Virus record (IMG/VR): IMGVR_UViG_3300035138_000207
Span: 1 to 45,030 of that record
Reading direction: 5' to 3' (one strand)
Length of the DNA: 45,030 bases
Source of the DNA: a virus
Positions 738 to 44,186 of the stretch are shown piece after piece; the stretch's first letter is position 1; each line of letters opens with the position of its first letter. The position numbers were made by a program, and so were the translations under genes. The notes beneath the pieces were generated by a model. The model ran no database searches, was not told the DNA's origin, and was given only the letters and a program-made list of their open reading frames with translations.

Positions 738-2639
738 ATGCCGGGTAATCCTTATTTACAGCATTCTTTACTAAATCAAATCAGTTTTGAGTCTTTGTTT
801 GAGATTCGCAATTTCATTAAAGGATTCAAAACCGATGCTTACATTCCCATGCCTTCAAAATGGGCGGCGGAGAATCGTTATCTGCCGCCAGGTACTACTG
901 AATATCCTGGACTTGTTGATCATTCGATCGCGCCTCATTTAGTTGAAATTCAGGATTGCTTTCATCCAGACAGCGGAATCACAAAAGTAACAATCATGAA
1001 GGGCACTCAGGCTCTTGCTACTACGGCAATCGAGAATGTGATCGGTCATAGCATAAAATTTAAACTTCATAATATTTTATATATTATTTCCAGTAAGAAC
1101 ATCGCCGGTATCAGGTCGAGTTCGGCGATAGATACTATGATAGATTACAGCAATCTGACTGAATATATAAAGCCGATATCGACCCGCATGAAACGGAAGG
1201 TCGCCGATAATAAGTACTATAAGGAAATGCACGGCGGGCGCCGGTTGATGCTGACTTCCTGGAATAGCATCGCCGATGCAAAATCCGTAACCTGGTCTTT
1301 TATCATAGAAGACGAGCTTGAGGAAGCACCTTACGAACTCGCAAAACAGGGAGATCCTGAAAGTATTTTTGAAGGACGCGCTAAAACAATCAGGGATTTA
1401 AAGATAGCACAATTGAGCACGCCTATAAATGTCAACGGCAGAATATATAAAAATTTCCTGCTTGGCGATCAGCGTTTTTTTTACGCTCAATGCGTTCTTT
1501 GCGGAGAAAGGCAGATTTTGGAACTATTCGGACTGGGGCGCGATTACGGGTTAAAAGCGAGATCGGAAACGATTGACGGCGTTGAACAGATCATCCCGGA
1601 AACGGTCGAATACATTTGTAAACATTGCAAGAAATCTTTGAGGGAATTTCAGAAGGGAAAAATGATGACCGGCGGTATCTGGATACCGACGGCTCGGCCG
1701 GTCAATCCCGGATACCGGTCGTACCACATAAGCAATTTAATGTCACCGGTAATGTTTTATACATGGACCCGTGTAATGCAGGATTTTTGCGAAACCGACT
1801 GGGGCGCGAATGTAACGAAATTCAAAAATTTTACGATCGATACGCTCGGCTGGCCCTGGGAAAACAGGACTGAAAAGAAATCCTGGAAAGATATTAAGTA
1901 CAAGCGTGCGGAAAAATATCCGCTGGGAATAATGCCGGACGGCGGGTTGATAGCGGTAAGCGGGACCGACGTGCACAAAATATTTTTGGAAACGACCGTC
2001 GTCGGTTACGGTCCGGGAATGGAAAACTGGATCATCGATCATAAGAAATTTTACGGGGAGACTTACAATTATAAAAATAAAGTCTGGCAGGAATGGCAGA
2101 ATTATATTACAAAAATAAAATTTAAATTAAAAAATATCGAAATACCTATAGCAATGAACGCCGTCGATTCCGGATACAACCCGAAACAGAACGAACTGAA
2201 CGACACAAGCCTGAACGAAGAGCATACCGTGTACGAGATAGTCGCGCGGACTCCCCGGTGCATAGCCGTCCGCGGCAACGATTCCCTGCTTGACATGGTG
2301 ATAAAACCGGAAAAAGTGAAAAAGGTTTCTCCCCTCAAATTCCGGTACGACGTGGCTGTCAGCGTCCTGAAGGAAGAAGTTATGATAAACCTCGACCTGC
2401 CGGAAGGTTCCCGTGGGTATATTCATTTTTCCGCAGAATTGCCGGATGAATACTTTAAAGGTTTTTTATCGGAAGTTTACGCGGAAGTTTTGCCGGGGAA
2501 ATGGATGTGGAAAAAAATATACGAACGCAATGAACCGCTTGACACTTATATCAGCGCGAGAGCCGCGGCGGAAAGGCTTAACCTGCCGTCATGGAGCGAC
2601 CAGGTATGGGAGAATTACAGGGGGAAGCTGTTTAATTGA
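738..2639 (+). CDS. terminase large subunit (lambda gpA / GpA family)
   Basis: This is the packaging motor and cos-cleaving nuclease. At 633 residues it matches lambda gpA (641). A P-loop-like segment lies near residues 86-97 (MKGTQALATTA), in the degenerate form usual for GpA proteins, and a Walker-B-like acidic EDELEE begins at residue 191. A Cys-x2-Cys pair near residues 252-256 and a second near 292-295 suggest a small zinc-binding insertion. The C-terminal third carries GTD and NAVDSGY segments typical of the RNase-H-like nuclease. The start has an AAGGAAG ribosome site. The gene lies 59 bases after the small subunit frame and is followed after one base by a small gene. Confidence 0.93.
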   Translation: MPGNPYLQHSLLNQISFESLFEIRNFIKGFKTDAYIPMPSKWAAENRYLPPGTTEYPGLVDHSIAPHLVEIQDCFHPDSGITKVTIMKGTQALATTAIENVIGHSIKFKLHNILYIISSKNIAGIRSSSAIDTMIDYSNLTEYIKPISTRMKRKVADNKYYKEMHGGRRLMLTSWNSIADAKSVTWSFIIEDELEEAPYELAKQGDPESIFEGRAKTIRDLKIAQLSTPINVNGRIYKNFLLGDQRFFYAQCVLCGERQILELFGLGRDYGLKARSETIDGVEQIIPETVEYICKHCKKSLREFQKGKMMTGGIWIPTARPVNPGYRSYHISNLMSPVMFYTWTRVMQDFCETDWGANVTKFKNFTIDTLGWPWENRTEKKSWKDIKYKRAEKYPLGIMPDGGLIAVSGTDVHKIFLETTVVGYGPGMENWIIDHKKFYGETYNYKNKVWQEWQNYITKIKFKLKNIEIPIAMNAVDSGYNPKQNELNDTSLNEEHTVYEIVARTPRCIAVRGNDSLLDMVIKPEKVKKVSPLKFRYDVAVSVLKEEVMINLDLPEGSRGYIHFSAELPDEYFKGFLSEVYAEVLPGKWMWKKIYERNEPLDTYISARAAAERLNLPSWSDQVWENYRGKLFN

Positions 2640-2640
2640 A

Positions 2641-2871
2641 ATGTACTGGACGACTGAAAAAATTAATATAATCAAAACTATTATGCTATATGCAAATAGT
2701 TATGATTCTGCAGTCAAAGAATTAAGGCAATACAATATAATAACAAACAAAGGAGTATTGAATCAAATTGTTGTTAAATTAAGAAAATCTGGAAATATAA
2801 AAACTCCGTTTCTCAGACATGGAGGCAAAAGGCCCGGAAGCGGAAGACCAAAAATAAATTATGAAAAATGA
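2641..2871 (+). CDS. small basic DNA-binding-like protein
   Basis: This 76-residue protein starts with an ATG one base after the large terminase stop, which implies coupled translation. The N-terminal 55 residues look like a compact helical, HTH-like unit with repeated IK/LR motifs. The C-terminus GGKRPGSGRPK resembles an AT-hook/GRP DNA-binding tail seen in many small phage proteins. A longer in-frame extension into the terminase gene exists but overlaps it fully and is unlikely. Codons are much more A-rich than in the terminase, so this marks the start of an AT-rich inserted segment. Function unknown. Confidence 0.6.
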   Translation: MYWTTEKINIIKTIMLYANSYDSAVKELRQYNIITNKGVLNQIVVKLRKSGNIKTPFLRHGGKRPGSGRPKINYEK

Positions 2872-3034
2872 AAAAATAAGACAGAAAAGATTAGAAAAGC
2901 AGAGAATGAAAAGAAAGCATCATAATAAAGTAGCTGATCATAGAAGCAGATGTGAATTCGGGAATTATAGGAAATATCAGCAGGAAAAAATTTATGAATA
3001 TAAATATAGAGAGTTAGAAAAAATATTTAAATGA
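2861..3034 (+). CDS. very basic small protein, unknown
   Basis: This 57-residue reading frame overlaps the previous gene by 11 bases, and its stop overlaps the next ATG (ATGA). That tight coupling is the main reason to call it. The product is dominated by Lys, Arg, Tyr and Glu (KNEKIRQKRLEKQRMKRKHH at the start), probably helical and nucleic-acid binding. No family was recognised. Confidence 0.5.
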   Translation: MKNEKIRQKRLEKQRMKRKHHNKVADHRSRCEFGNYRKYQQEKIYEYKYRELEKIFK

Positions 3035-3282
3035 AAATCAAAAAAATAGATACATCAAAACATTGTATATCAGGAACATTTGAACATCAAATACCGATGC
3101 CTATTATGGGCCGGGTAAGATATATCGATTACTGTATAGCTGATATTGTAGCAGCTTTAAATGCTGCCGGAATAAATACAATTGCTTCATGCTGCGGACA
3201 TGGAAAAGATGACGGATCTATAATTTTAGATGATAGATATGATAACAGGGAAATTATAATTAAATTTAATAAGGAATTATAA
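3031..3282 (+). CDS. small conserved-type phage protein with CCGHG motif
   Basis: This 83-residue protein contains INTIASCCGHGKDDGSI near residues 48-64, followed by a short beta-rich end. The SCCGHG.....GSI pattern recurs in small phage and prophage proteins of unknown function; the Cys-Cys-His group may bind metal. It starts in an ATGA overlap with the preceding small gene. It is the last gene before the first repeat array, which begins about ten bases after its stop. Confidence 0.6.
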   Translation: MKIKKIDTSKHCISGTFEHQIPMPIMGRVRYIDYCIADIVAALNAAGINTIASCCGHGKDDGSIILDDRYDNREIIIKFNKEL

Positions 3283-3292
3283 AATAATTCAC

Positions 3293-3377
3293 GGCGTGGC
3301 ATGAATTAGGAGTAAACCAATATTTTAGAGCGAGCCAACATCTGAGAGTAAACCACATTGGTCGAGCGTAATTTTAA
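3293..3377 (+). repeat. array 1: alternating 9-base repeats with 9-base spacers
   Basis: Repeat R1 = AGTAAACCA occurs at 3311-3319 and 3347-3355, and R2 = AGCGAGCCA at 3329-3337. A degenerate R2 (GGCGTGGCA, 6 of 9 identical) lies at 3293-3301. Each spacer is exactly nine bases: TGAATTAGG, ATATTTTAG, ACATCTGAG and CATTGGTCG. The array closes with AGCG plus TAATTTTAA at 3365-3377, the same 13 bases that close array 2. It sits between a small phage gene and the IS110-like gene. The ribosome site of that gene (TAGGAGTAAA, 3387-3396) itself resembles an R1 start. Stops fall in the frame set by the repeats, so this is more likely RNA or a DNA site array than protein. Confidence 0.85.
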
Positions 3378-3401
3378 AAAAAATATTAGGAGTAAAATTA
3401 A

Positions 3402-4274
3402 ATGAACCAAGAAGATCATAAAAATTTAAAAGCATTAGTACGCACCATGTATGATTATCAGGCAATGCGAATAGTAACTGGCATTAGAATGAGATTCAAA
3501 AAAAATGAAGAAAAAATGGCAGAGGAATTTATGGATGATGCTGAGATATCTGAAAAAGATTACGATGCAGTAAATTATACTTATGAAACTTCAAAACGTG
3601 TTGAAGCAAGATTATCAAAAGAAATTAAAAGTATAATAAAAAAAGAACCTATTTATGAAAAATTTCTTATAAAAGTTCTGGGCTGCGGAGAATTAATGTC
3701 AGCTGCTATTTTATGCGAATTTGATATTGAAAAAGCTGCAACTGTATCAAAATTATGGCAATTCGCCGGATTAAATCCCGGAATGGTCAGAGGTAAAAAA
3801 ATATTGAATATCACAAAAAAAACAGATCTGGCAAAATATGAAGTCGTAAAAAAATATAAAAATCAAAGAGGTGAAGAATGCGCAATAATATTGTCAGATG
3901 AAATGATTAGAGGAGATAAAAAGAAAACCGGATTTATTTCCCCTTTCAATTCATGGATACGAACAAAATTATGCGGCACGCTTGCAGATTGTATGATTAA
4001 AGCAAATGGGAATCCTAATCCGGATAAAATAAATTATCCAGTAAAGTATTATTATCCATATAAAACCAGACTTGAACAGGAAGAAAATACAGTAACTCAT
4101 ATCGGAAAAGAAACCGCATGGAAAGACGTATCAAAAGGACACCGTGATAGAGCCGCAAAGCGTTACATGATAAAAATGTTTTTGAAGGATTTATATGTAG
4201 AATGGAGAACAATTGAAGGATTATCAGTCAGACCACCTTATCAGGAGGAATATTTAGGGCATAAGCATGAATGA
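3402..4274 (+). CDS. orphan IS110-like protein (Transposase_20 domain only), array-associated
   Basis: This 290-residue protein carries the C-terminal domain of IS110/IS116/IS902 transposases. It has a helix-hairpin-helix-like GCGELMSAA at residues 94-102, FAGLNPG at 121-127, and FISPFNSWIRTKL at 178-190. The last aligns with the IS110 segment ISKxGNxxLRxxL that carries the catalytic serine; Ser180 and Ser184 are candidates here. A basic helical tail RYMIKMFLKDLYVEW spans 254-268. The N-terminal DEDD RuvC-like domain of real IS110 transposases is absent, replaced by about 80 helical residues, and there are no insertion-sequence ends or target duplications. It lies precisely between two repeat/spacer arrays, and its stop codon falls inside the first repeat unit of array 2. 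Orphan proteins of this type recur in phages. The role is unknown; RNA- or array-guided action is an inference. Confidence 0.8.
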   Translation: MNQEDHKNLKALVRTMYDYQAMRIVTGIRMRFKKNEEKMAEEFMDDAEISEKDYDAVNYTYETSKRVEARLSKEIKSIIKKEPIYEKFLIKVLGCGELMSAAILCEFDIEKAATVSKLWQFAGLNPGMVRGKKILNITKKTDLAKYEVVKKYKNQRGEECAIILSDEMIRGDKKKTGFISPFNSWIRTKLCGTLADCMIKANGNPNPDKINYPVKYYYPYKTRLEQEENTVTHIGKETAWKDVSKGHRDRAAKRYMIKMFLKDLYVEWRTIEGLSVRPPYQEEYLGHKHE

Positions 4275-4498
4275 GCCAAATGCTTGGAGTAAACCAAAAC
4301 GAAGGAGCGAGCTATGTAAGTGGAGTAAACCAATATACCAGAGCGAGCCATGAAATCTGAGTAAACCACGAATTTCGAGCGAGCCATCAAATCTGAGTAA
4401 ACCAGAGATTTCGAGCGAGCCACAGAAAGTGAGTAAACCAAAGATCTATAGCGAGCCAATTCCGAAGAGTAAACCATTTAAGTAGAGCGTAATTTTAA
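4265..4498 (+). repeat. array 2: twelve 9-base repeats alternating in two types, 9-base spacers
   Basis: R1 (AGTAAACCA) is perfect at 4288, 4324, 4360, 4396, 4432 and 4468, exactly 36 bases apart. R2 (AGCGAGCCA) is at 4342, 4378, 4414 and 4450, with variants at 4270 (AATGAGCCA) and 4306 (AGCGAGCTA). All spacers are exactly nine bases and differ; most end in G, so the unit may be ten plus eight. It opens with GCATGAAT, which also opens array 1 (3299), and closes with AGCGTAATTTTAA at 4486-4498, identical to array 1. It overlaps the end of the IS110-like gene and stops four bases before the next ATG. In register it would read SKPxxxSEPxxx, with an ATG at 4267 but a TGA at 4351 and a TAG at 4483. 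Confidence 0.9.
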
Positions 4499-4502
4499 CA
4501 TC

Positions 4503-5210
4503 ATGAAAATAATAATCAGAACCTGCGGCGAACGCACGACAAAGGAATGTATCCGGCTTGCCGGAAAGCAGGGCAGCGTTGAAGTAATAAACGCCGTCCC
4601 CTTCGGCGAATCGATCAGGCTGACTTATTTAAAAGCGATGCAGTACAACCAGGAATGGGTACCTGTCGTCGATGCCGATACATTGCTTTACGACAACGTC
4701 CTGCAGCCGGCTATCAATGAACTGGCAGGCAAGAATGATAAAATATTCTGCCTTGACGGTAACACTGACGATAAAATCCTGATGAAGAAACGCCGTGCCG
4801 GTATACATATTTACAGGCGGGAGCTTTTAAGTTTTGCAATGCGTTTTATCGACAACAATCACATCAAACCTGAAAGTAATATCAGACGTCAAATGTCCGA
4901 CCTGGGATTTCCGACTTACGTATCGGGAATTGTTTTCGGCAGGCACGATTATGAACAGTATTACAGGGACCTGTGGAGGAAAGCCGTCTGCCAGACTCGG
5001 AAATTGGGAGGGATGATAAAGAACCGGCCGGACAGATGGAAAGAACTGGCAAAGGAAGACGATGATTTTTTTGTCATATACCACGCTCATTATTACGGGA
5101 AAAGTCTCAATGAAAAGATCGTCATCGACAGGCGTCAGGATTTTGATGCTGAGGAAAATATCAAAAAACTGGGATTAAAGGAAAAGGGGGAATATGAAAA
5201 CGCTCAATGA
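4503..5210 (+). CDS. glycosyltransferase-like protein (GT-A fold, DxD)
   Basis: This 235-residue protein has an N-terminal beta-alpha-beta pattern (KIIIRTCGERTTKECIRLA) and a VVDADTLL segment near residues 57-64 that fits the nucleotide-sugar/metal-binding DxD of GT-A enzymes. The C-terminal half is polar and lacks membrane segments, suggesting a cytoplasmic enzyme acting on soluble or lipid-linked sugars. There is no clear ribosome site because array 2 ends four bases upstream. Base use is clearly richer in G+C than the array segment. It begins a run of carbohydrate- and methyl-transfer genes to 8126, consistent with host-surface or virion glycan modification. Confidence 0.65.
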   Translation: MKIIIRTCGERTTKECIRLAGKQGSVEVINAVPFGESIRLTYLKAMQYNQEWVPVVDADTLLYDNVLQPAINELAGKNDKIFCLDGNTDDKILMKKRRAGIHIYRRELLSFAMRFIDNNHIKPESNIRRQMSDLGFPTYVSGIVFGRHDYEQYYRDLWRKAVCQTRKLGGMIKNRPDRWKELAKEDDDFFVIYHAHYYGKSLNEKIVIDRRQDFDAEENIKKLGLKEKGEYENAQ

Positions 5211-8646: not shown

Positions 8647-10125
8647 ATGATCGTAGTTATAAATAACGGCAAGGCCACGCCGCTCAGACGCGGAAAGCAG
8701 ATGACCGGGGAAAAAATACCTGGCGATCTCAAGTCATGGGATCATATGGGCACGGATCCGAACGAGTTGCTGCTATGGTCTTACGATATTTTATCGGAAA
8801 GATCGACGACTCTTTACCATACGCATCCGCCGGTAGCCGGGGCTATAAACAAGCTGACAAATTACGCGATAGGAAATGGGAATGTCTTCCGATCCCAGCC
8901 GGACTGGGAAATCCTGGAAATTAAAAAAGATTACGCGAAGGATTGGGGAATGCGTTTTCAGAAGCTTGTACATTATACATTCAAGCTGCTGAATTATTAC
9001 GAAAAACAATCTCTGCTTTTCAGGACCGCCCTGGTAATGGGAGATTCCCTGCTTATATTCGACAGAAATTCAAAACCGTTCGGAATGCCGTTCGACCTGG
9101 TCGAATCGGGAGGTGACCAGATTAGTTTTCAGGCAAAGGGGACTACGCTTGGCATATATCATGACGGACTTCTGCGCAGGCAGGGAGTAGCGCTTTATGG
9201 CAAGCAGGAAAAAACGCCTTTCACCGACGAGAATGGCGATCAGAACATTATCCAGTTTTACCTGAAGCTGATAGCCAGACAATTACGGGGTTATCCCGCG
9301 GCATACAGGATCATTGCCGCAGCAAAGAACAATGACAGATGGTGGGATGCCACGCTCGCGAGAGCCGTACTTGAAGCGACTATTTTTGCAAGCGTTAAAG
9401 AACAAAATGCCGGCGATACCAATTTGCAAATGGAAGCCCTGCATGACGCGTTATATAACGAAAACGGAAACAAGGCAAATACACTGGAACGGGAGAACGT
9501 ATACGATATCGGCGCCGGAAACATCCTCAGCTATGGAAAAAATGCGGGACCGATAGAATTTTCCGACCTGAAAACGCCTTCAGGCAATTTTGATAAAATG
9601 CAGGCTGCCTATATCGATATGGTCGGAATGGCCACGGATGTGCCTCCCGAATATGTTTTGTCAAAGTACAATACAAGCTACACAGCTCATAAAGGCGCAG
9701 GCAACGACTTTATCCGTTCATACATGCAGAAAAGAAATAGGTTTAATTACAACGTAGACCGGCCGGTAATAAGGGAACTGGCTAAATATTTTTTTATGGC
9801 CGGTTTGATAGAAATGCCTAATCCGAAATTTTTTACAAGTGCCATAATACAGGAAGCGACGATTGCCGGTAAATTTATCGGTCCGGTACCTGGACATATC
9901 AATCCGCTGCAGGAAGTAAACGCAAATGTAAAGGCAGTGGATAACGCTTTTGAATTGCGGTCGGATATCGCGGCGCAGTATGGCAACGAGTGGGACAATG
10001 CTATCGAGGAATGGCAGATCGAAGAGGATGAATTCCGGAAAAAAAAGCCGCAGATACAGGCCCAGATAATCGGGCAGGAAATGGATGAGGCCGATCTGAA
10101 TAAAAATAAAGGAGACGATGAATGA
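8647..10125 (+). CDS. portal protein (lambda gpB family)
   Basis: At 492 residues this fits lambda-type portals (533 in lambda). Recognisable parts are HTHPPVAGAINKLTNYAIGNG near residues 57-77, the central LIARQLRGYPAAYRIIAAAKN region near 208-228, and YKLSxYNTSYT-like SKYNTSYTAHKGAGNDF near 337-353, all typical of the family. The portal forms the dodecameric DNA entry channel at one capsid vertex and docks terminase. Its stop overlaps the start of the protease gene by four bases. Confidence 0.92.
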   Translation: MIVVINNGKATPLRRGKQMTGEKIPGDLKSWDHMGTDPNELLLWSYDILSERSTTLYHTHPPVAGAINKLTNYAIGNGNVFRSQPDWEILEIKKDYAKDWGMRFQKLVHYTFKLLNYYEKQSLLFRTALVMGDSLLIFDRNSKPFGMPFDLVESGGDQISFQAKGTTLGIYHDGLLRRQGVALYGKQEKTPFTDENGDQNIIQFYLKLIARQLRGYPAAYRIIAAAKNNDRWWDATLARAVLEATIFASVKEQNAGDTNLQMEALHDALYNENGNKANTLERENVYDIGAGNILSYGKNAGPIEFSDLKTPSGNFDKMQAAYIDMVGMATDVPPEYVLSKYNTSYTAHKGAGNDFIRSYMQKRNRFNYNVDRPVIRELAKYFFMAGLIEMPNPKFFTSAIIQEATIAGKFIGPVPGHINPLQEVNANVKAVDNAFELRSDIAAQYGNEWDNAIEEWQIEEDEFRKKKPQIQAQIIGQEMDEADLNKNKGDDE

Positions 10126-11267
10126 AAACCATATATTTATCAGGTGTTGTAGGCTGGGATATAACTGCGGACAGGATAAGGGAACAGGCCGATATGAAAT
10201 CCCAGGAAAAACTCCGGGTAATAGTAAATTCTCCCGGCGGTTACGTTGACGACGCGTTTGAAATATATGATTTGTTTCAGACATACAAAGGCGAGATTGA
10301 ATTCGTAATAATGGCTTATGCGGCCAGCGCGATGAGTTACATTGTAATGTCCGGCGATAAAATATCCGCGTTCAAAAATTCAATCTGGATGGCACATAAA
10401 GTTCAGAGTATAGCTATCGGCGATGATGATGACATGTTCCGAGAGGGAAACATTTCAAAGGGTATGAATAACATTCTCGCCGAAGCATACGCGAAAAGGC
10501 TTTCGGGCAGCAGGGAAGAAATCCTGGCAAAAATGAAAAATGAAATATGGGCTATCGGATGGGAACAACTCACTGACGCAGGCCTGATTGACAATGTGAT
10601 CGATAATCCGGAAGAACTGGAAATCCCGGATATCAAGGAAGATGAAAAGGAGGAATTATTCCTGTCCGTGACGGATAATATCGAAACGGAAAAATTATTC
10701 GCGGCCGCAAAAACAAAGGTAATCGCCGTTCAAAACAAGATCCGCAAGGATGAAGAACGGATGAAAGAAAGCATTCAGAAAGCTGCCGCATTTATAAAGG
10801 ATTTAAATCCGGTTAAACCGGAAAATAATAAAAAACTGGAGGCAAACATGAATTTGCAAGAATTTTTAAAAGCTAATCCGGATGCCAAGGCCGAGTTTGA
10901 CGAAGCCCTCCGAGCGGCCAGGGAGGAAGGACAGGCTTTAGGTTCCGCCGATGTGAACGCGGAAAGGCAGAGAATCTTTAACATGCTCAGGGATTCCGGG
11001 ACTGCCGTAACGAAGGAATTGGCAGATGCCATTAACCAGGGCACGCCTGACCTGGAGTTCGCAAGGGCGGAACTTCAGAGGCAGAGGGCTAAGCGCGATA
11101 AAACGGACGGTATTGACTTCGGAACGCTTGTTGTTAACCAGACTCCGGGCGAACAGGATAAAAAGACTGCCGGCGAGCTGAAGAACAAAAAAAAGTCGGA
11201 CGAGGAGTTCGACAAGGAAACGGATGCAATGATTTCCAAAATTAACGAGGTCGGAGGTAAAAAATAA
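10122..11267 (+). CDS. ClpP-like prohead protease fused to scaffold
   Basis: In this 381-residue protein the N-terminal 170 residues form a ClpP/S14-like fold: oxyanion-loop NSPGG at residues 36-40, nucleophile in AYAASAMS (Ser69), and histidine in IWMAHK (His92). Residues 180-381 are highly charged and helical, as expected for scaffold. This matches lambda gpC, whose 3' half also encodes scaffold Nu3. An internal start with a strong ribosome site produces the scaffold alone (see next entry). The protease would cleave the portal, scaffold and itself during head maturation. Confidence 0.9.
   Translation: MKTIYLSGVVGWDITADRIREQADMKSQEKLRVIVNSPGGYVDDAFEIYDLFQTYKGEIEFVIMAYAASAMSYIVMSGDKISAFKNSIWMAHKVQSIAIGDDDDMFREGNISKGMNNILAEAYAKRLSGSREEILAKMKNEIWAIGWEQLTDAGLIDNVIDNPEELEIPDIKEDEKEELFLSVTDNIETEKLFAAAKTKVIAVQNKIRKDEERMKESIQKAAAFIKDLNPVKPENNKKLEANMNLQEFLKANPDAKAEFDEALRAAREEGQALGSADVNAERQRIFNMLRDSGTAVTKELADAINQGTPDLEFARAELQRQRAKRDKTDGIDFGTLVVNQTPGEQDKKTAGELKNKKKSDEEFDKETDAMISKINEVGGKK
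10848..11267 (+). CDS. nested scaffold protein (Nu3-like internal start)
   Basis: Within the protease gene, in the same frame, an ATG at 10848 is preceded by CTGGAGGCAAAC, a near-ideal ribosome site seven bases upstream. The 139-residue product begins MNLQEFLKANPDAKAEFDEAL and is almost entirely charged helix, typical of capsid scaffolds. This reproduces the lambda C/Nu3 arrangement. The internal initiation is inferred from the site and from family precedent. Confidence 0.7.
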   Translation: MNLQEFLKANPDAKAEFDEALRAAREEGQALGSADVNAERQRIFNMLRDSGTAVTKELADAINQGTPDLEFARAELQRQRAKRDKTDGIDFGTLVVNQTPGEQDKKTAGELKNKKKSDEEFDKETDAMISKINEVGGKK

Positions 11268-11602
11268 TGAGTACCGAATATTTAACTGAAAATTTGATTG
11301 CAGGTCCCTGCAATACACAGCAGGTCAAGTTCGCGGCAGATACATATTACCGCGGAATGCCGCTTGAATACGATGCCGATAATGACAGGTACCAGTATTA
11401 CGGAACCTCCACAAGCATAATCGCGGGCATTTTCCTTGAGGATGAAAGCCGCGCCATATCCGCGAACGGATACGGATCTATCATCAAGGGCGGCGAAGTG
11501 TACGAAGGCGGCATCGTCGATGACAGCGGCGATGCTTATACGATAACCGAGGACATAATCGACGCATGGGCAAAACTCGGAATTTACATTAAAAGGACAT
11601 AA
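11267..11602 (+). CDS. head decoration protein (lambda gpD-like)
   Basis: This 111-residue protein matches the gpD family in length and pattern: an extended N-terminus, then AGIFLEDESRAISANGYGSIIKGGEV and AWAKLGIYIKRT at the end, corresponding to the beta-tulip fold. Trimers cement the expanded capsid at the quasi-threefold axes. The start overlaps the protease stop (TAATG). Confidence 0.85.
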   Translation: MSTEYLTENLIAGPCNTQQVKFAADTYYRGMPLEYDADNDRYQYYGTSTSIIAGIFLEDESRAISANGYGSIIKGGEVYEGGIVDDSGDAYTITEDIIDAWAKLGIYIKRT

Positions 11603-11616
11603 GGAGGCTAAAAGAA

Positions 11617-12711
11617 ATGGCTGAAGTATTAAATCAATTTACGCGGAGAATGAAAAAGTTTTACGAGGTCATTTACAACGATCTCATGCCGGGAATGAAG
11701 GGAATCGATGAATTCCTTTTTCCGGAGCTGGATATAGATCCTGACAGCAGCGGTTTCGCGCTGGATGAACTCGTAAAAAACGTGCACGGCGTATCTTTCC
11801 GGCGCAGAGGCGAACAATCTGCAGTAAGACCTTATGAAGCCGGAGTCGGTACTATTTACGAGATCGAAAGAGCATCCGAAAAAACGCCGATAACTGAACG
11901 TCTAAGGGATATTGTTATTGCCGGCGGCGAGGAAACGGAAGCATTCAGCTCCCGCGAAGCGCGTTTGATCCGGCAAATCACCAAACAGCATACGGTTGCA
12001 CATAATATAACGCGCTGGAAGTTGTCAATTGATACGATCAGAACCGGGAAATATTCGCCCAAAGGCATTGACGGCCAGGATATAGGTATGGAAATTGATT
12101 TTTCCAGGGATGCGAGCCTTGATATAACATACGATTTTACCGATTCCGGGGCAAAAGTCAATACTGCTCTTAAGGCTCTTTATGATGCGTACAGGGCAAA
12201 AAATGGTTTCGGCACAAATCTTGTATGCCTGATGGGATCTAGCTGGCTGAAACAGTTTGAAGAAGATGACGATGTAATCGAAAACCGCAAGGCAAATTCC
12301 GATAACATACTGGTTACCTCAAATCTAATCCCGCCGGCAATGCAGAATGTACAGGGATTATATCTGGTATCTATGTACAGAGTTCCCGGAGTTGTTTTTC
12401 CGATGTTTATTTGCGCATATGATCCGGATGCTTCCTTTATTGCATATAAAGGCGCTACTGCAACGGCATATGTCCCGGACGATGAATGCCTGATGTTTTC
12501 GTTAAAATCCCCCCGGTATAAAGTACAGAGGGGCGTCGATGTGCTGGATTCAAACGGAAATGCTGCAAGGACTGCCGGCGATATAGTATTTGATGAATTT
12601 ACGGAGAAGGATCCGGTTCAGACATACCTGAGAAGCCAGGCAAGATATGCTTTTATCCCGGCCGATGCGGATCATACGGCCAGATCAACGGGAACTTTCA
12701 GCGAAAGTTAA
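11617..12711 (+). CDS. major capsid protein (lambda gpE family)
   Basis: At 364 residues this is close to lambda gpE (341). It has the order typical of the family: N-terminal arm, TERLRDIVIAGGEETEAFSSREARLIRQIT near 88-117, then a long A-domain with LVSMYRVPGVVFPMFICAY near 250-268 and a C-terminal DVLDSNGNAARTAGDIVFDEFTEKDP segment. A strong ribosome site (AAGGAGGCTAAAAG) supports the start and high expression. Confidence 0.92.
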   Translation: MAEVLNQFTRRMKKFYEVIYNDLMPGMKGIDEFLFPELDIDPDSSGFALDELVKNVHGVSFRRRGEQSAVRPYEAGVGTIYEIERASEKTPITERLRDIVIAGGEETEAFSSREARLIRQITKQHTVAHNITRWKLSIDTIRTGKYSPKGIDGQDIGMEIDFSRDASLDITYDFTDSGAKVNTALKALYDAYRAKNGFGTNLVCLMGSSWLKQFEEDDDVIENRKANSDNILVTSNLIPPAMQNVQGLYLVSMYRVPGVVFPMFICAYDPDASFIAYKGATATAYVPDDECLMFSLKSPRYKVQRGVDVLDSNGNAARTAGDIVFDEFTEKDPVQTYLRSQARYAFIPADADHTARSTGTFSES

Positions 12712-26392: not shown

Positions 26393-26421
26393 TATTGATT
26401 TATATACAAATTAATATTTAA

Positions 26422-26443
26422 TGTAGCAAAAATGTAGCAAAAA
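26422..26443 (+). promoter_or_regulatory. integrase arm-type repeats, left pair
   Basis: Two direct copies of TGTAGCAAAAA lie at 26422 and 26433, spaced 11 bases (about one helical turn). An equally spaced, same-orientation pair lies on the other side of the tRNA-like core at 26670 and 26681. Such pairs flanking the core are the usual layout of tyrosine-integrase arm sites. Confidence 0.7.
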
Positions 26444-26554
26444 TTTTTTTAAACCAATAAACAAAGAATGATATATACTAAAAAACAATTGACTTTCTTC
26501 TATTATATGCTTAAATCAGATTAATTAAATATACTTTAAATGAAAATATTCCCC

Positions 26555-26599: not shown

Positions 26600-26669
26600 T
26601 TCTGAAAATCAATAAAAATACAAGGGAAAAGGAAAGTCGGTATTTGATAAGCGCTTAAAAATTCAAAAA

Positions 26670-26690
26670 TGTAGCAAAAATGTAGCAAAA
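26670..26690 (+). promoter_or_regulatory. integrase arm-type repeats, right pair
   Basis: TGTAGCAAAAA at 26670 and TGTAGCAAAA at 26681 form the second direct pair, five bases upstream of the integrase start. They could also let integrase repress its own transcription by covering its promoter. Confidence 0.65.
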
Positions 26691-26694
26691 TTAT

Positions 26695-27855
26695 ATGTCA
26701 AATTTTAACCTTTACGCCAGAAAGAAAAAAAGCGGAAAATCCGTCTATTATGTCCGCTTTAAAAAATCGGACGGTTTATATACTACGGCGCTGTCTACCG
26801 GGTGTACATCGAAACTGGCGGCCAGGGAATGGGCTGAAAATCATTTAATTGATATAGGAATACCTGTAACCGGCAGGAACGTAACTTTTAAGGAATTTTC
26901 CAAAAACTTCTTTGACTGGGACGGCACATGGGCGCTTAATAAACGATCGCAGGGTTTAAGGTTAAGTAAGTCTCACTGTCTTTATACCGCAAAGACTGTT
27001 GAGAAGCATGTACTGCCTGTTTTTGGAAATACCAACCTGGCTGATATCGATAAGTTAAAAATCAGGGATTTCAGAAATACATTGTTTAAACAGGGATGGT
27101 CAGGAAGCCTGATAAACAAAGCTTTATATGCCATTAAAATTATACTGGATGCCGCTGAAGAACGGGGATACATAAAAGGCGTACCGAAAATAGAGAAGGC
27201 CGTAGAGAAGCCTAAAATAAAAGGTATTTTAACAATTGATGAAGTCCGGGAATTATTTACGCAGCCATGGATGACAAACACCTACCCTGAACGGGAACAG
27301 TTGCATGGATTTGTCGGGAATTTACTTGCATGTGTGTCGGGATTAAGGCTCGGCGAAATCCAGGGATTGCTTTTGTCAGATTTGCATATTGAAGACGGTT
27401 ATATCACTGTCCGTCGGTCCTGGAATCGGATACTCTGTCATCTTAACGAAACGACGAAGAACGGGAAAATACGGAATATACTGATACCTTCATATGCCGC
27501 CAGTCAGGTAGAAAGGCTCGTAAAAGAAAATCCCGGGCAATCTCCTGATTCTTTTTTATTTTTTTCATTTATTAATTCCCAGCCGGTTGATTCAAAAGTA
27601 TTTATTAACTCTTTTTTTAATGCCTTGAAAAAAATCGGGATATCCGAAGTGGAACGTAAGCAACGCAACATAACTTTCCATTCCCATCGCCACTGGTTCA
27701 ATTCCCTTCTCCTGAACGCGAGGATCCCGCTGCATAAGGTGCAATCGTTAACGGGTCATCTTTCCGATGAAATGACCGAATTGTATTATCATACTGACGA
27801 TATGGCAGATGTAAAGCAGATTCAGGAAGAATTGTTTTCTGATAAAATAAATTAA
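26695..27855 (+). CDS. int: tyrosine-recombinase integrase
   Basis: This 386-residue protein has a small N-terminal AP2-like arm-binding domain (residues 1-50), a core-binding SAM-like domain (about 60-165), and a catalytic domain. That domain contains Arg in VSGLRLGEIQGL, HSHRHWFNS, GHLSDEMTELYYH, and nucleophile Tyr near residue 364. It inserts the phage at the 3' end of a host tRNA-Ala gene using the core at 26555-26599. It lies directly beside attP, in the forward direction, as in many lambdoid-like phages. Confidence 0.95.
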   Translation: MSNFNLYARKKKSGKSVYYVRFKKSDGLYTTALSTGCTSKLAAREWAENHLIDIGIPVTGRNVTFKEFSKNFFDWDGTWALNKRSQGLRLSKSHCLYTAKTVEKHVLPVFGNTNLADIDKLKIRDFRNTLFKQGWSGSLINKALYAIKIILDAAEERGYIKGVPKIEKAVEKPKIKGILTIDEVRELFTQPWMTNTYPEREQLHGFVGNLLACVSGLRLGEIQGLLLSDLHIEDGYITVRRSWNRILCHLNETTKNGKIRNILIPSYAASQVERLVKENPGQSPDSFLFFSFINSQPVDSKVFINSFFNALKKIGISEVERKQRNITFHSHRHWFNSLLLNARIPLHKVQSLTGHLSDEMTELYYHTDDMADVKQIQEELFSDKIN

Positions 27856-30690: not shown

Positions 30691-30996
30691 ATGACTAAGC
30701 TACAACAGGGAGATGTAATTTTAATAAAAGTAAATTGCGATTTACGACAAGGAAAAAAATTAAATCATCTTATTTTAGCCGAAGGGGAAGCAACCGGACA
30801 TTCTCATCAAATTGTTTCCGGTATTGCTACTTTAATAGCAGTGGGAAATAAAACGATATTACACGTTTTATCTGACTATGCAAAACTCGATCATGAAGAA
30901 CATAAAGAAATCAATGTACCAAAAGGTAAATGGGAGGTTAAAAAAGTCAGGGAATACGATCATTTCGAGGAAGAAATAAGACAGGTTATAGATTAA
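30691..30996 (+). CDS. small protein coupled to the tetrapeptide-repeat gene
   Basis: This 101-residue protein has the pattern QGDVILIKV...LAEGEATGHSHQI...LHVLSDYAKLDHEEHKEINVPKGKWEVKKVREYDH. This beta-rich small protein, with GE.TGHSH and H.EH..I..P.G.W.V...REYD, recurs next to repeat proteins of the kind encoded immediately downstream. The His-rich motifs suggest metal binding. Its stop shares a base with the next start (TAATG), so the pair is probably co-translated. Confidence 0.65.
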   Translation: MTKLQQGDVILIKVNCDLRQGKKLNHLILAEGEATGHSHQIVSGIATLIAVGNKTILHVLSDYAKLDHEEHKEINVPKGKWEVKKVREYDHFEEEIRQVID

Positions 30997-32423
30997 TGAT
31001 AAATCAATTAACACAAAAACAGGAAGAACAATTAATTCAATTCCGCGAAGAATGTCTTACAATAGGATTATCCACAGATCGGATAGATCGTTCTAAAAAT
31101 CAAAAAATAATAAATTGGATTTATAAAAAATATTTAAAAATCGATAAAAATCCTTATATATGGTATATTGATAGTCCTTTTTCATATAATTTAGTTATCA
31201 ACATTCTATATAATCTCGGGGCCAATCTCAGGGACAATCTCAAGGACAATCTCTGGGACAATCTCTGGGACAATCTCGGGGCCAATCTCAGGGACAATCT
31301 CAAGGACAATCTCTGGGACAATCTCAGGGACAATCTCGTGGCCAATCTCAGGGCCAATCTCAGGGCCAATCTCGTGGCCAATCTCAGGGCCAATCTCGTG
31401 GCCAATCTCAGGGCCAATCTCGGGGCCAATCTCAGGGACAATCTCGGGGACAATATCTGGGACAATATCTGGGCCAATCTCAGGGACAATCTCGTGGCCA
31501 ATCTCAGGGCCAATCTCGTGGCCAATCTCAGGGACAATCTCTGGGCCAATCTCTGGGACAATCTCTGGGCCAATCTCAGGGCCAATCTCTGGGCCAATCT
31601 CAGGGACAATCTCTGGGACAATATCGGGGCCAATCTCTGGGACAATCTCGGGGACAATATCGGGGCCAATCTCAGGGACAATCTCGGGGACAATATCGGG
31701 GCCAATCTCGGGGACAATATCGGGGCCAATCTCAGGGACAATCTCGTGGACAATATCGGGGCCAATCTCAGGGACAATCTCGTGGATAAAGTTACATTTT
31801 ATAATATATATCACTGTAATTTAGATATCTTTTGGATATCATTTTATATGTATCCATTATTATATATAAAAAATTTTTACGGATTATTAGCAAAAGATAT
31901 TATAAGATATTTTGAACTACAGAAAAATATAGGCTATGTTTTTTATCACAAAGATATATGTTTTATTTCAGAGAAACCCATTGAGATAAATAAATCCGGC
32001 ATCCAGTTGCATGCTGACGGAAAACCTGCACTACTCTTTGCGGATGGATATTGTTTATGGATGCTTAATGGCGTAAGAATGCCAAAAAAAATTGTCATGA
32101 CTCCTGCTAAAGAACTCGATTGCAATTTAATTTTAAAAGAAAAAAATGCCGAAGTAAGACGTGAAATTATCCGTAAAATAGGTATAAATAGAGTCATTGA
32201 GAAACTAAAAGCTACATCCATTGATAAATCTCTGGATGGTCAATATGAATTAATGAATTTTAATTGTATTGATGGTAGATTCCGACCTTATCTTAAAATG
32301 TTAAATCCTTCAAACGGAATGTGGCATATCGAGGGAGTACATCCTGACTGTCGAACCATAAGCCAGGCTTTATCATGGAGAGACGGTGAGGATGATTATC
32401 AAAAACCTGAAATACTTACATAG
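30996..32423 (+). CDS. tetrapeptide-repeat protein (DUF6745-like)
   Basis: This 475-residue protein has three parts. Residues 1-72 are an N-terminal helical domain. Residues 73-264 are 48 uninterrupted repeats of N-[LI]-x-[AD], where x is only G, R, W, V or K. Residues 330-475 form a C-terminal domain with LHADGKPALLFADGYCLWMLNGVRMP and KNAEVRREIIRKIGINRVI, which fits the DUF6745 family as I recall it. No enzymatic motif is visible. The function of such proteins is unknown. The almost identical codons of the repeats indicate recent expansion. It is coupled to the upstream small gene. Confidence 0.75.
   Translation: MINQLTQKQEEQLIQFREECLTIGLSTDRIDRSKNQKIINWIYKKYLKIDKNPYIWYIDSPFSYNLVINILYNLGANLRDNLKDNLWDNLWDNLGANLRDNLKDNLWDNLRDNLVANLRANLRANLVANLRANLVANLRANLGANLRDNLGDNIWDNIWANLRDNLVANLRANLVANLRDNLWANLWDNLWANLRANLWANLRDNLWDNIGANLWDNLGDNIGANLRDNLGDNIGANLGDNIGANLRDNLVDNIGANLRDNLVDKVTFYNIYHCNLDIFWISFYMYPLLYIKNFYGLLAKDIIRYFELQKNIGYVFYHKDICFISEKPIEINKSGIQLHADGKPALLFADGYCLWMLNGVRMPKKIVMTPAKELDCNLILKEKNAEVRREIIRKIGINRVIEKLKATSIDKSLDGQYELMNFNCIDGRFRPYLKMLNPSNGMWHIEGVHPDCRTISQALSWRDGEDDYQKPEILT
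31212..31787 (+). repeat. 48 tandem 12-base units
   Basis: 576 bases of AA-T-[CA]-TC-NNG-G-[CA]-C units with no interruption or frameshift. Variation is confined to three places: first base of codon 2 (C/A), the first bases of codon 3 (GGG, AGG, TGG, GTG, AAG), and the middle of codon 4 (GCC/GAC). Because the period is a multiple of three, antisense frames over it are also open and should not be taken as genes. Confidence 0.95.
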
Positions 32424-41289: not shown

Positions 41290-41658
41290 ATGCTGGCATT
41301 ATCAATCCGTGAACCCTGGATATATGCTATTCTGCATTTAAAAAAAAATGTTGAGAATAGAACCTGGCCAACGAAAGTTTGTGGCAGAATTTTATTACAT
41401 GCATCAAAACAGTTCGATTATGATGGCTATAGATGGATTGAAAATGAAATGGGATATATTCTTCCTGAAAAAGATATGTTTGAACTTGGCGGTATTGTGG
41501 GATCAGTAGAAATAACAGACTGCATTAAATATCATGATTCAGGCAAAAAAATTCCTTCATGGTTTTTTGGTCCTTATGGATTTATATTAAAGGATCCTGA
41601 ACCAATAAATTTTATATTATATAAAGGGCAGCTTGGATTTTTCGAGGTTCATATATAG
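41290..41658 (+). CDS. ASCH-domain protein
   Basis: This 122-residue protein starts at the ATG nine bases after GAGGTG. LALSIREPWIYAILHLKKNVENRTWPTKVCGRILLHASK (2-41) is a clear ASCH/PUA-like signature, followed by GGIVGSVEITDC near 66-77 and FFGPYGFILKDPEPI. ASCH proteins bind RNA or modified nucleosides; some cut RNA or deacetylate nucleosides. Here it may act on RNA or modified bases alongside the DNA methylases. Its stop overlaps the next GTG start. Confidence 0.85.
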   Translation: MLALSIREPWIYAILHLKKNVENRTWPTKVCGRILLHASKQFDYDGYRWIENEMGYILPEKDMFELGGIVGSVEITDCIKYHDSGKKIPSWFFGPYGFILKDPEPINFILYKGQLGFFEVHI

Positions 41659-44186
41659 TGAATAATTCAGATTATTTAAAATTTCTAAAAAACAAAATGA
41701 AGCTTGCTGTCTCTTCAGGTATTGACGTTGCCAAAATAGACATCCAAAACATAAATACCGGAGTAAAGAAATTAAAGCCGCATGAAATTGACGCGATTAG
41801 ATGGGCTGCTATCGGAGGACGTCGCGCATTGTTCGAATCATTCGGACTTGGTAAAACATGTCAGCAGCTTGCGCTTGCGAAATTAATTACAGACAGGGAA
41901 GACGGTAAATTTTTAATTATTATGCCGCTCGGAGTTAAGCAGGAATTTAAAAGAGACGCTCAGGATTTTTTTAATATTAACGATATCGTTTATGTAAAAA
42001 CACTGGAAGAATGCAGGGAATCAAGCAGTAAAATACTGATTACCAACTACGAGCGAGTCCGCGACGGGAATATTGATCCTAATTATTTTATTGGATGTTC
42101 CCTTGATGAAGCATCTATACTAAGAGGATATGGCACAAAGACATATCAGACTTTTTTGACATTATTTGACGGAGTCAAATATAAATTTGTCGCAACTGCA
42201 ACGCCTTCGCCTAACAGATATAAAGAGTTAATTCATTATGCCGGTTTTCTTGGAATAATGGATACTGGGCAGGCCCTCACTCGTTTTTTTAAAAGAGATT
42301 CGACAAAAGCCAACAAGCTGACTTTGTATCCGCATAAAGAAGAAGAATTCTGGCTGTGGGTATCGACCTGGGCGCTGTTTATTACAAAGCCTTCAGATCT
42401 CGGATATGACGATACGGGTTACGATCTGCCGCCTCTGAACATTCATACCCACAGGCTGAAAGTCGATCATTTGACTGCAGGCGCCGACCGGATGGGGCAA
42501 ATGCAGCTATTCAGGGATGCGGCACTATCAATTCAGGATGCCTGCAAAGAAAAGAGAGACAGCCTTGATAATCGTATAGATGAAATGATGCGGATTATTG
42601 ATGCTAATCAGGAAAAGCATTTTATTATCTGGCATGATCTTGAATCGGAAAGGCACGCGATAAAAAAAGCATTGCCTGAAGTAAAGGAAATCTATGGAAC
42701 ACTTGATATTGATATTCGTGAACAAAGGACCATCGATTTTTCAGACGGTAAAATAAAGTATATCGCTACAAAACCGGAAATATCCGGATCCGGGGTCAAC
42801 TGGCAGCGGTATTGCTCAAATGCTATATTTTTAGGCATAGGATACAAGTTTAATGATTTTCTGCAGGCTATTCACCGTTTACGGCGTTTTCTTCAGGATA
42901 AGGAAGTTAATATTTTCATTATTTATACGGAATCGGAAGATCAGATATATCAAGTTCTTTTGCAGAAATGGCAGCAGCATGATTATCTTGTAAATAAAAT
43001 GATTGATATAATTAAAAAATATAACCTTTCAATTAATGCCATCGAAGACGGTTTAAAAAGGTCATTTCATCAGGAGAGAACAGAAGTGAAAAAAAACAGA
43101 TTTATTGCAATCAATAATGATAATGTAATTGAATGCCGGAATATGAAAGACAATTGTATTGATCTTTTGCTGACATCAATTCCTTTTAGCAATCATTACG
43201 AATATACGCCAACATATAATGATTTCGGTCATAATGAAAATAACGAAAAATTTTTCATCCAGATGGATTTTTTAACGCCTCATCTTTTAAGATTGCTTAA
43301 ACCGGGCAGGGTGGCCTGTATTCATGTAAAAGACCGCGTTTTATTCGGAAACGCGACCGGTGACGGAATGCCGACGATAGATCCTTTTTCAGACATGACG
43401 GTTTTTCATTTTATCAAGCACGGCTTCCGCTACATGGGAAGGATAGTCGTTTTGACTGATGTAGTCAGGGAAAATAACCAGACATACCGGCTCGGATGGT
43501 CCGAGCAGTGTAAAGACGGCACTAAAATGGGAGTCGGATGTCCTGAATATATACTATTATTCAGGAAGCTGCCTTCCAATAATAATAAAGCTTACGCCGA
43601 TAATCCCGTAATTAAATCCAAAAAGGAATATACAAGGGCGCAATGGCAGATTGATGCGCATGCTTTCTGGAAATCATCCGGAAACCGGCTTCTTTCATTT
43701 GAAGAATTAAAAAATATCAAGATTGATAATTTGCAGCATGCTTTTCGGGATTTTACTAGTAAAGAAATATATGATTATGACCAGCATATAGAATTGTCAA
43801 AATATCTCGATGAGAACAACCGATTGCCAGCTGCTTTCATGGTAGTGGCGCCTGGTTCATGGTCGGACCTTATATGGGATGATATTAACCGTATGCGGAC
43901 ATTAAACGGCAATCAATCCGCGAAAAATCTGCAAATGCATATATGTCCGTTTCAATTAGACATAGTTGAAAGGTTAATTAACAGATTTAGTAATAAAAAC
44001 GATGTTGTTTTTGACCCATTTGCTGGATTATTTACAGCCCCTTATATGGCCGTTAAAATGGGACGGAAGGGAATAGGAATAGAATTAAATCTGGAATCAT
44101 TTTATGATGGTGTTCAATATATGAATGCTGTTGAAGAAGAATATGAAACTCCGACATTATTTGATTATTTGGATATGGCAGGATAA
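41658..44186 (+). CDS. SNF2-like helicase fused to DNA adenine/cytosine-N4 methylase
   Basis: This 842-residue protein starts at a GTG overlapping the previous stop. The first half is a superfamily 2 motor: Walker A SFGLGKT (61-67), DEAS (150-153), TATPSP near 178, and a second RecA lobe ending FLQAIHRLRRFLQ. The second half is a beta-type N6/N4 methylase: catalytic-type TSIPF at 506-510 (in place of TSPPY/DPPY), then motif I DPFAGLFTAPYMAVKMGRKGIGIE at 786-809. It would translocate on and methylate DNA. The change of P to I in the catalytic loop may affect target or activity. Confidence 0.85.
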   Translation: MNNSDYLKFLKNKMKLAVSSGIDVAKIDIQNINTGVKKLKPHEIDAIRWAAIGGRRALFESFGLGKTCQQLALAKLITDREDGKFLIIMPLGVKQEFKRDAQDFFNINDIVYVKTLEECRESSSKILITNYERVRDGNIDPNYFIGCSLDEASILRGYGTKTYQTFLTLFDGVKYKFVATATPSPNRYKELIHYAGFLGIMDTGQALTRFFKRDSTKANKLTLYPHKEEEFWLWVSTWALFITKPSDLGYDDTGYDLPPLNIHTHRLKVDHLTAGADRMGQMQLFRDAALSIQDACKEKRDSLDNRIDEMMRIIDANQEKHFIIWHDLESERHAIKKALPEVKEIYGTLDIDIREQRTIDFSDGKIKYIATKPEISGSGVNWQRYCSNAIFLGIGYKFNDFLQAIHRLRRFLQDKEVNIFIIYTESEDQIYQVLLQKWQQHDYLVNKMIDIIKKYNLSINAIEDGLKRSFHQERTEVKKNRFIAINNDNVIECRNMKDNCIDLLLTSIPFSNHYEYTPTYNDFGHNENNEKFFIQMDFLTPHLLRLLKPGRVACIHVKDRVLFGNATGDGMPTIDPFSDMTVFHFIKHGFRYMGRIVVLTDVVRENNQTYRLGWSEQCKDGTKMGVGCPEYILLFRKLPSNNNKAYADNPVIKSKKEYTRAQWQIDAHAFWKSSGNRLLSFEELKNIKIDNLQHAFRDFTSKEIYDYDQHIELSKYLDENNRLPAAFMVVAPGSWSDLIWDDINRMRTLNGNQSAKNLQMHICPFQLDIVERLINRFSNKNDVVFDPFAGLFTAPYMAVKMGRKGIGIELNLESFYDGVQYMNAVEEEYETPTLFDYLDMAG

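What the first reader, a model, noticed from the sequence alone, without database searches (positions are those of the whole stretch)
4270..4485. Strict 18-base clock with two repeat types in perfect alternation
In array 2 all six R1 copies are identical and exactly 36 bases apart, with R2 copies midway. R1 and R2 fit one pattern, AG[TC][AG]A[AG]CCA, differing by three transitions. Both contain a GNRA-type tetranucleotide (GTAA, GCGA). Ordinary satellites do not keep variable spacers at constant length. The constraint is on length and on the repeats, not on spacer sequence, as in guide arrays or protein-docking arrays.
Basis: seen in the sequence. Interest (0 to 1): 0.75.

Follow-up and report, generated by a model that had tools for sequence, protein, structure and literature searches.

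The report
Phage TIGR-TasA RNA-guide array
The regular 18-base pattern is a phage-borne TIGR array, a bank of small split guide RNAs used by a neighbouring Tas protein to find DNA; the kind of system was described in 2025, and this is another member without a nuclease whose natural targets are still unknown.

Summary
Array 2 (4269-4489) holds six identical GAGTAAACCA repeats exactly 36 nt apart, alternating with GAGCGAGCCA-type repeats and separated by 8-nt variable spacers. A two-unit array with the same repeats lies at 3292-3368. The 290-aa gene between them (3402-4274) passes the curated NCBIfam model for TIGR-Tas proteins. Its predicted fold matches solved TasH and TasR (Z 20 and 18), but it has no nuclease domain. 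This is a TIGR-TasA locus of the kind described by Faure et al. 2025 (PMC12045711). Relatives in about 50 phage contigs and MAGs keep the 36-nt unit, 8-nt spacers and the box C/D pair, while spacers vary. No target was found above mispaired controls, in the phage itself or in 1.8 Mb of related phage DNA. Close relatives add something: arrays change by gain and loss of whole 36-nt units, even between contigs identical over 1,500 bp of flank, with no polarity at one end. This is a new member of a known kind; the array-turnover data bear on an open question about how TIGR arrays grow.

The parts
3402..4274 (+). tasA gene, 290 aa, solo Nop-domain TIGR-associated protein, no HNH or RuvC domain
   Evidence: NCBIfam NF052498 119 bits vs cut-off 100; PDB TasH E 1e-12 and TasR 9mty 1e-8; AlphaFold model pLDDT 88.6 matches TasH Z 20.4, TasR Z 18.2, IS621 Z 14.1, Nop5 about 7
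4269..4489 (+). TIGR array 2: six units of edge repeat, 8-nt spacer A, loop repeat, 8-nt spacer B, 36 nt each, ending in truncated edge GAGCG
4269..4278 (+). first edge repeat, 5' half degenerate (GAATGAGCCA), overlapping the tasA stop codon 4272-4274
4287..4476 (+). six identical loop repeats GAGTAAACCA at 4287, 4323, 4359, 4395, 4431, 4467
4305..4458 (+). edge repeats GAGCGAGCCA at 4305 (1 mismatch), 4341, 4377, 4413, 4449 (1 mismatch)
4485..4489 (+). 3'-truncated last edge repeat (GAGCG, followed by TAATTTTAA)
   Evidence: same end as array 1
3292..3368 (+). TIGR array 1: two units with the same repeats; loops at 3310 and 3346, edge at 3328, degenerate first edge 3292-3301, truncated last edge GAGCG 3364-3368 followed by TAATTTTAA

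Best explanation
The locus is a TIGR-TasA system carried by a tailed, probably temperate phage. The two arrays would be transcribed on the + strand together with tasA and cut inside the edge repeats into 36-nt tigRNAs. Each tigRNA (half edge, spacer A, loop repeat, spacer B, half edge) would be held by a symmetric TasA dimer through two box C/D-like motifs, one in the loop repeat and one made by the two edge halves. Spacer A pairs with one strand and spacer B with the other strand of a contiguous target of about 16 bp. With no nuclease domain, the complex would bind, unwind and sharply bend DNA rather than cut it. Most likely it represses or blocks rival mobile elements or host genes (about 0.5). 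Shown here: repeat anatomy, Tas homology and fold, absence of a nuclease domain, conservation of the rule in relatives. Inferred from the published system: processing, dual-strand pairing and bending. Not shown for this locus, and open for TasA in general: the biological target and outcome.
For: The protein passes the curated TIGR-Tas model, its best PDB sequence relatives are TasH and TasR, and its model matches TasH-tigRNA and TasR-tigRNA complexes above everything else. The array matches the published description: two alternating 8-12-nt repeats, short spacers, 36-nt unit, arrays upstream and downstream of tas, truncated edges at both ends (PMC12045711). In relatives all detected arrays lie on the tas strand, and 47 of 53 contigs gave a detectable array. 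Box D/C pairing (positions 3-8) holds in 65/65 arrays in both edge and loop, with G-C to U-A replacement in three loop sets. The extra edge pair (4-7) holds in 63/65 edges but only 17/65 loops, as the TasR structure paper predicts.
Against: No transcript or RNP data. No rho-independent terminator was found after the arrays, though the paper says one is typical. The box D motif here is AG rather than the UG of TasR arrays; the paper allows such divergence. Edge repeats were detected with a consensus, which favours their conservation. No target found.
Confidence: 0.96

Rival explanations
1. The array is a DNA-level protein docking array (iteron-like), with phased sites for a phage DNA-binding protein, and the tas gene is a coincidental neighbour.
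For: Strict phasing and short repeats.
Against: Relatives pair this repeat type with a Tas gene on the same strand, also in unrelated phage backbones. Repeat base pairs covary as in an RNA. Arrays end in the half edge repeats that a last or first tigRNA needs.
Confidence: 0.02
2. It is a minisatellite or coding repeat with no guide function.
For: Tandem Repeats Finder does report it as a 36-nt tandem array.
Against: Spacers are mostly unrelated between units while spacing stays exact. The + strand of the array carries stop codons in every frame. The same layout recurs next to diverged tas genes.
Confidence: 0.01
3. It is an IS110-type transposon remnant with its bridge RNA (the protein is called 'transposase' in PHROGs and weakly hits Transposase_20).
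For: Pfam Transposase_20 E 0.031, below its cut-off; PHROG 4285 'transposase'; fold match to IS621 Z 14.1.
Against: No DEDD/RuvC catalytic domain, closer to TasH/TasR (Z 20 and 18), and a multi-unit dual-repeat array instead of a single two-loop bridge RNA.
Confidence: 0.01

Closest known systems
TIGR-TasA (Faure et al. 2025, PMC12045711; e.g. Flavonifractor plautii FpTIGR)
   Same: Solo Nop-domain protein, dual alternating repeats, 36-nt unit, arrays on both sides of tas, truncated terminal edges, phage context
   Different: Spacers of 8 nt with 10-nt repeats here (FpTIGR has 18 nt of spacer per unit); box D is AG; only 2 and 6 units; no terminator detected
TIGR-TasH of Salicola phage CGphi29
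   Same: Closest solved relative (Z 20.4), 16 nt of spacer per unit as here
   Different: TasH has an HNH nuclease that this protein lacks; identity about 25%
TIGR-TasR (PDB 9mty)
   Same: Nop fold, box C (CCA) ends of repeats, edge/loop logic
   Different: TasR has a RuvC nuclease; repeats start with UG
IS110/IS621 bridge-RNA recombinases and box C/D snoRNPs (Nop5)
   Same: Shared Nop-type RNA-binding fold (Z 14 and about 7)
   Different: Different RNA architecture and effector domains

Membership tests
TIGR-Tas | Nop-domain Tas protein by sequence | tested here: met
   NCBIfam NF052498 119.4 bits against cut-off 100; PDB TasH E 1e-12
TIGR-Tas | Tas fold | tested here: met
   VIA-align Z 20.4 to 9w04 over 226 residues (rmsd 2.8), Z 18.2 to 9mty over 191
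TIGR-Tas | Array of two alternating 8-12-nt repeats with short spacers, about 36-nt unit, adjacent to tas | tested here: met
   definition in PMC12045711
TIGR-Tas | Box C/D pair kept and covarying in edge and loop repeats; extra pair in edge repeat only | tested here: met
   65/65 and 65/65 for positions 3-8; 63/65 edges vs 17/65 loops for positions 4-7; U-A replacement in three loop sets
TIGR-Tas | Truncated edge repeats at array ends | tested here: met
   Both arrays end in GAGCG followed by TAATTTTAA and begin with a degenerate edge
TIGR-Tas | Rho-independent terminator after the array (typical, not defining) | tested here: not met
   No + strand terminator-like site at 2600-4800; the paper calls it typical of arrays, not a criterion
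TIGR-Tas | Processing into 36-nt tigRNA bound to Tas | not testable with these tools
   needs small-RNA sequencing
TIGR-Tas | Dual-strand DNA targeting by spacer pair | not testable with these tools
   a search for genomic targets gave no excess over mispaired controls, which neither shows nor excludes it
TasA subtype | No nuclease domain | tested here: met
   290 aa; model residues 1-289 align to TasH from residue 63 on; no HNH or RuvC hit in Pfam
IS110 transposase | N-terminal DEDD/RuvC-like catalytic domain | tested here: not met
   model aligns to IS621 only from residue 124 on; no such domain in the 290 aa
CRISPR array | One repeat of about 25-36 nt, spacers of similar size | tested here: not met
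   two 10-nt repeats and 8-nt spacers

The most novel reading that the evidence does not exclude
TIGR arrays of phages are actively remodelled guide banks: complete 36-nt units (both spacers together) are exchanged from a shared pool at internal positions, faster than flanking DNA collects substitutions. That would imply a unit-acquisition or recombination process unlike end-polarised CRISPR adaptation.
Probability: 0.3. Interest if true: 0.7.

Novelty: new member of a known kind. Interest (0 to 1): 0.35.

Why it matters
TIGR-Tas is a recently described class of RNA-guided DNA-targeting systems whose natural role, targets and way of gaining guides are unknown, TasA most of all. A locus in a 45-kb phage record with two short arrays is a compact system for experiments. 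The comparison of near-identical phages gives direct data on how the arrays change, which the discovery paper lists as an open question.

Tried and rejected
Target search: composites of spacer A plus the reverse complement of spacer B, gaps -2 to +3, in own genomes and in all related contigs, against controls with A and B mispaired within the same contig. Exact matches were not enriched (gap 0: 1 vs 0.8 expected). An excess at gap 0 with at most one mismatch (48 vs 32) shrank to 57 vs 43 one-mismatch hits with sd 7.4 in the larger set and is treated as chance. Two reciprocal 1-mismatch hits between the related phages G029 and G033 were seen after the fact and are not claimed. Scanning IMG/VR for one composite gave 107 hits, about what I estimate for chance in a collection that size (my estimate of its size, not a tool result), so I stopped. 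Covariation between spacers A and B: none. GNRA tetraloops: rejected, see above. Whole-array RNA folding: not more stable than shuffles (z -1.1). Conserved partner gene next to tas: none; other window genes near tas had no homologue near tas in relatives apart from a distant terminase in two short contigs. Rfam and tRNA scans: empty. Supplementary tables of PMC12045711 could not be read, so I cannot say whether this exact record was in its list.

Full report
Observation. The window is a whole IMG/VR record of 45,030 bases. Array 2 starts at 4269 and ends at 4489. It holds six identical GAGTAAACCA repeats at a 36-nt step and, midway, GAGCGAGCCA-type repeats, two of which differ by one base and the first of which is degenerate. 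The invariant part of each repeat is 10 nt, so spacers are 8 nt. In 200 simulated sequences nothing comes near a run of six exact 9-mers at 36 nt. A two-unit array with the same repeats lies 5' of the gene, at 3292-3368. Both arrays end in the same truncated repeat, GAGCG followed by TAATTTTAA. The first repeat of array 2 overlaps the stop codon of the gene before it; in the closest relative, L001 (67% aa identity), the first repeat and the stop codon overlap with the same offset.

Identity. The gene between the arrays (3402-4274, 290 aa) passes NCBIfam NF052498, 'TIGR-Tas system RNA-guided endonuclease', with 119 bits against a cut-off of 100. Its best sequence relatives in the PDB are TasH (E 1e-12) and TasR 9mty (E 1e-8); with a profile of 13 relatives these become 1e-20 and 3e-22. 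An AlphaFold model made from those relatives (mean pLDDT 88.6) matches TasH complexes at Z 20.4, TasR at 18.2, IS621 at 14.1 and archaeal Nop5 at about 7. The match to TasH starts at TasH residue 63, so the N-terminal nuclease part is missing, and Pfam finds no nuclease. This is the TasA subtype. The NCBIfam name 'endonuclease' and the PHROG name 'transposase' mislead here.

Array anatomy against the published system. Faure et al. (PMC12045711) describe two alternating 8-12-nt repeats (edge and loop) with short spacers, arrays up- and downstream of tas, 5'-truncated first and 3'-truncated last edges, 36-nt processed RNAs, and a structure in which box D and box C of each repeat pair, with one further pair in edge repeats only. 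I read GAGCGAGCCA as the edge (it is the truncated one) and GAGTAAACCA as the loop. Over 65 arrays of relatives, positions 3 and 8 pair in 65/65 edges and 65/65 loops; three loop sets replace G-C by U-A. Positions 4 and 7 pair in 63/65 edges but only 17/65 loops. The edge search used a consensus, which favours the edge figures; the loops were required only to resemble their own array's consensus. The sequence enclosed by the kept pair is TAAA or CGAG, so the GNRA reading is in the wrong register.

Relatives. Scans gave 15 and then 44 viral loci, plus 10 in genome contigs of MAGs labelled Spirochaetes, Dehalococcoidia, Omnitrophota, Neomarinimicrobiota, Bathyarchaeota and others. All detected arrays lie on the tas strand. 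A ladder parser found arrays in 47 of 53 contigs and 718 units; spacer lengths were 8 and 8 in 632 of 676 counted units. Spacers A and B show no covariation. Other window genes are not found near tas in relatives, apart from a distant terminase in two short contigs, so the cassette sits in unrelated backbones.

Targets. With the geometry implied by 8-nt 3' overhangs (A followed by the reverse complement of B; my derivation), neither own genomes nor 1.8 Mb of related DNA held clearly more matches than controls with A and B mispaired. So there is no sign of self-targeting, and natural targets remain unknown. The power is limited, because targets in unsampled elements would be missed.

How arrays change. 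This goes beyond the finding and rests on metagenome assemblies. G034 and G042 are identical over 1,500 bp downstream of the array and over the 74 bp compared upstream, yet share only 12 of 22 and 18 units. Differences are whole 36-nt units scattered through the array, not gathered at one end. L298 and L299 differ by one complete unit. G029 and G033, about 90% identical in flanks, share none. Shared units keep both spacers together and nearly unchanged: 2 differences in 160 spacer sites (10 shared units) between G030 and G034, against 134 in 2,238 flank sites; counting one further, doubtful collinear unit it is 7 in 176. Shared units were defined by similar spacers, so this figure is biased low. 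Identical units occur twice within some arrays, and a few pairs of units share one spacer only. This points to duplication, loss and recombination at repeats, and perhaps to guides kept intact while a unit lasts. A dedicated acquisition process is possible but not shown.

Verdict. The system is of a known kind (2025). What remains open is what this nuclease-free version does and against what. In a phage with a tyrosine integrase (26695-27855) the paper's suggestions (blocking rival elements, aiding integration, regulation) all stay possible. I favour blocking rival elements or host genes, at about 0.5, because guides turn over fast in relatives and show no match to the phages that carry them.

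Noticed in passing
window 30996-32423: 475-aa protein with a long run of 4-aa repeats (such as DNLRANL, DNLWANL) encoded by about 48 copies of a 12-bp tandem repeat at 31212-31786.
   Followed up: partly
window 26695-27855 and 41658-44186: Tyrosine integrase (phage is probably temperate) and a protein with an SNF2-related domain and an N6/N4 DNA methylase domain.
   Followed up: no
window 26420-26444 and 26664-26690: Short runs of an 11-bp repeat (AATGTAGCAAA) in the stretch just before the integrase gene; possibly sites for integrase or its accessory factors.
   Followed up: no
L091 (G010) 9461-10297 and 11128-11961: Two tas genes in tandem with three TIGR arrays; some units are shared between its arrays.
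   Followed up: partly
L298/L299 and L307 (G034)/L308 (G042): Near-identical phages whose TIGR arrays differ by whole 36-nt units.
   Followed up: yes
G016, G027, G032, G039, G043 and L063: tas-bearing contigs in which the ladder parser found no dual-repeat array, although a looser scan saw weaker edge chains next to tas in G016 (L032) and L063; the others may have diverged repeats or the stem-loop array type.
   Followed up: no
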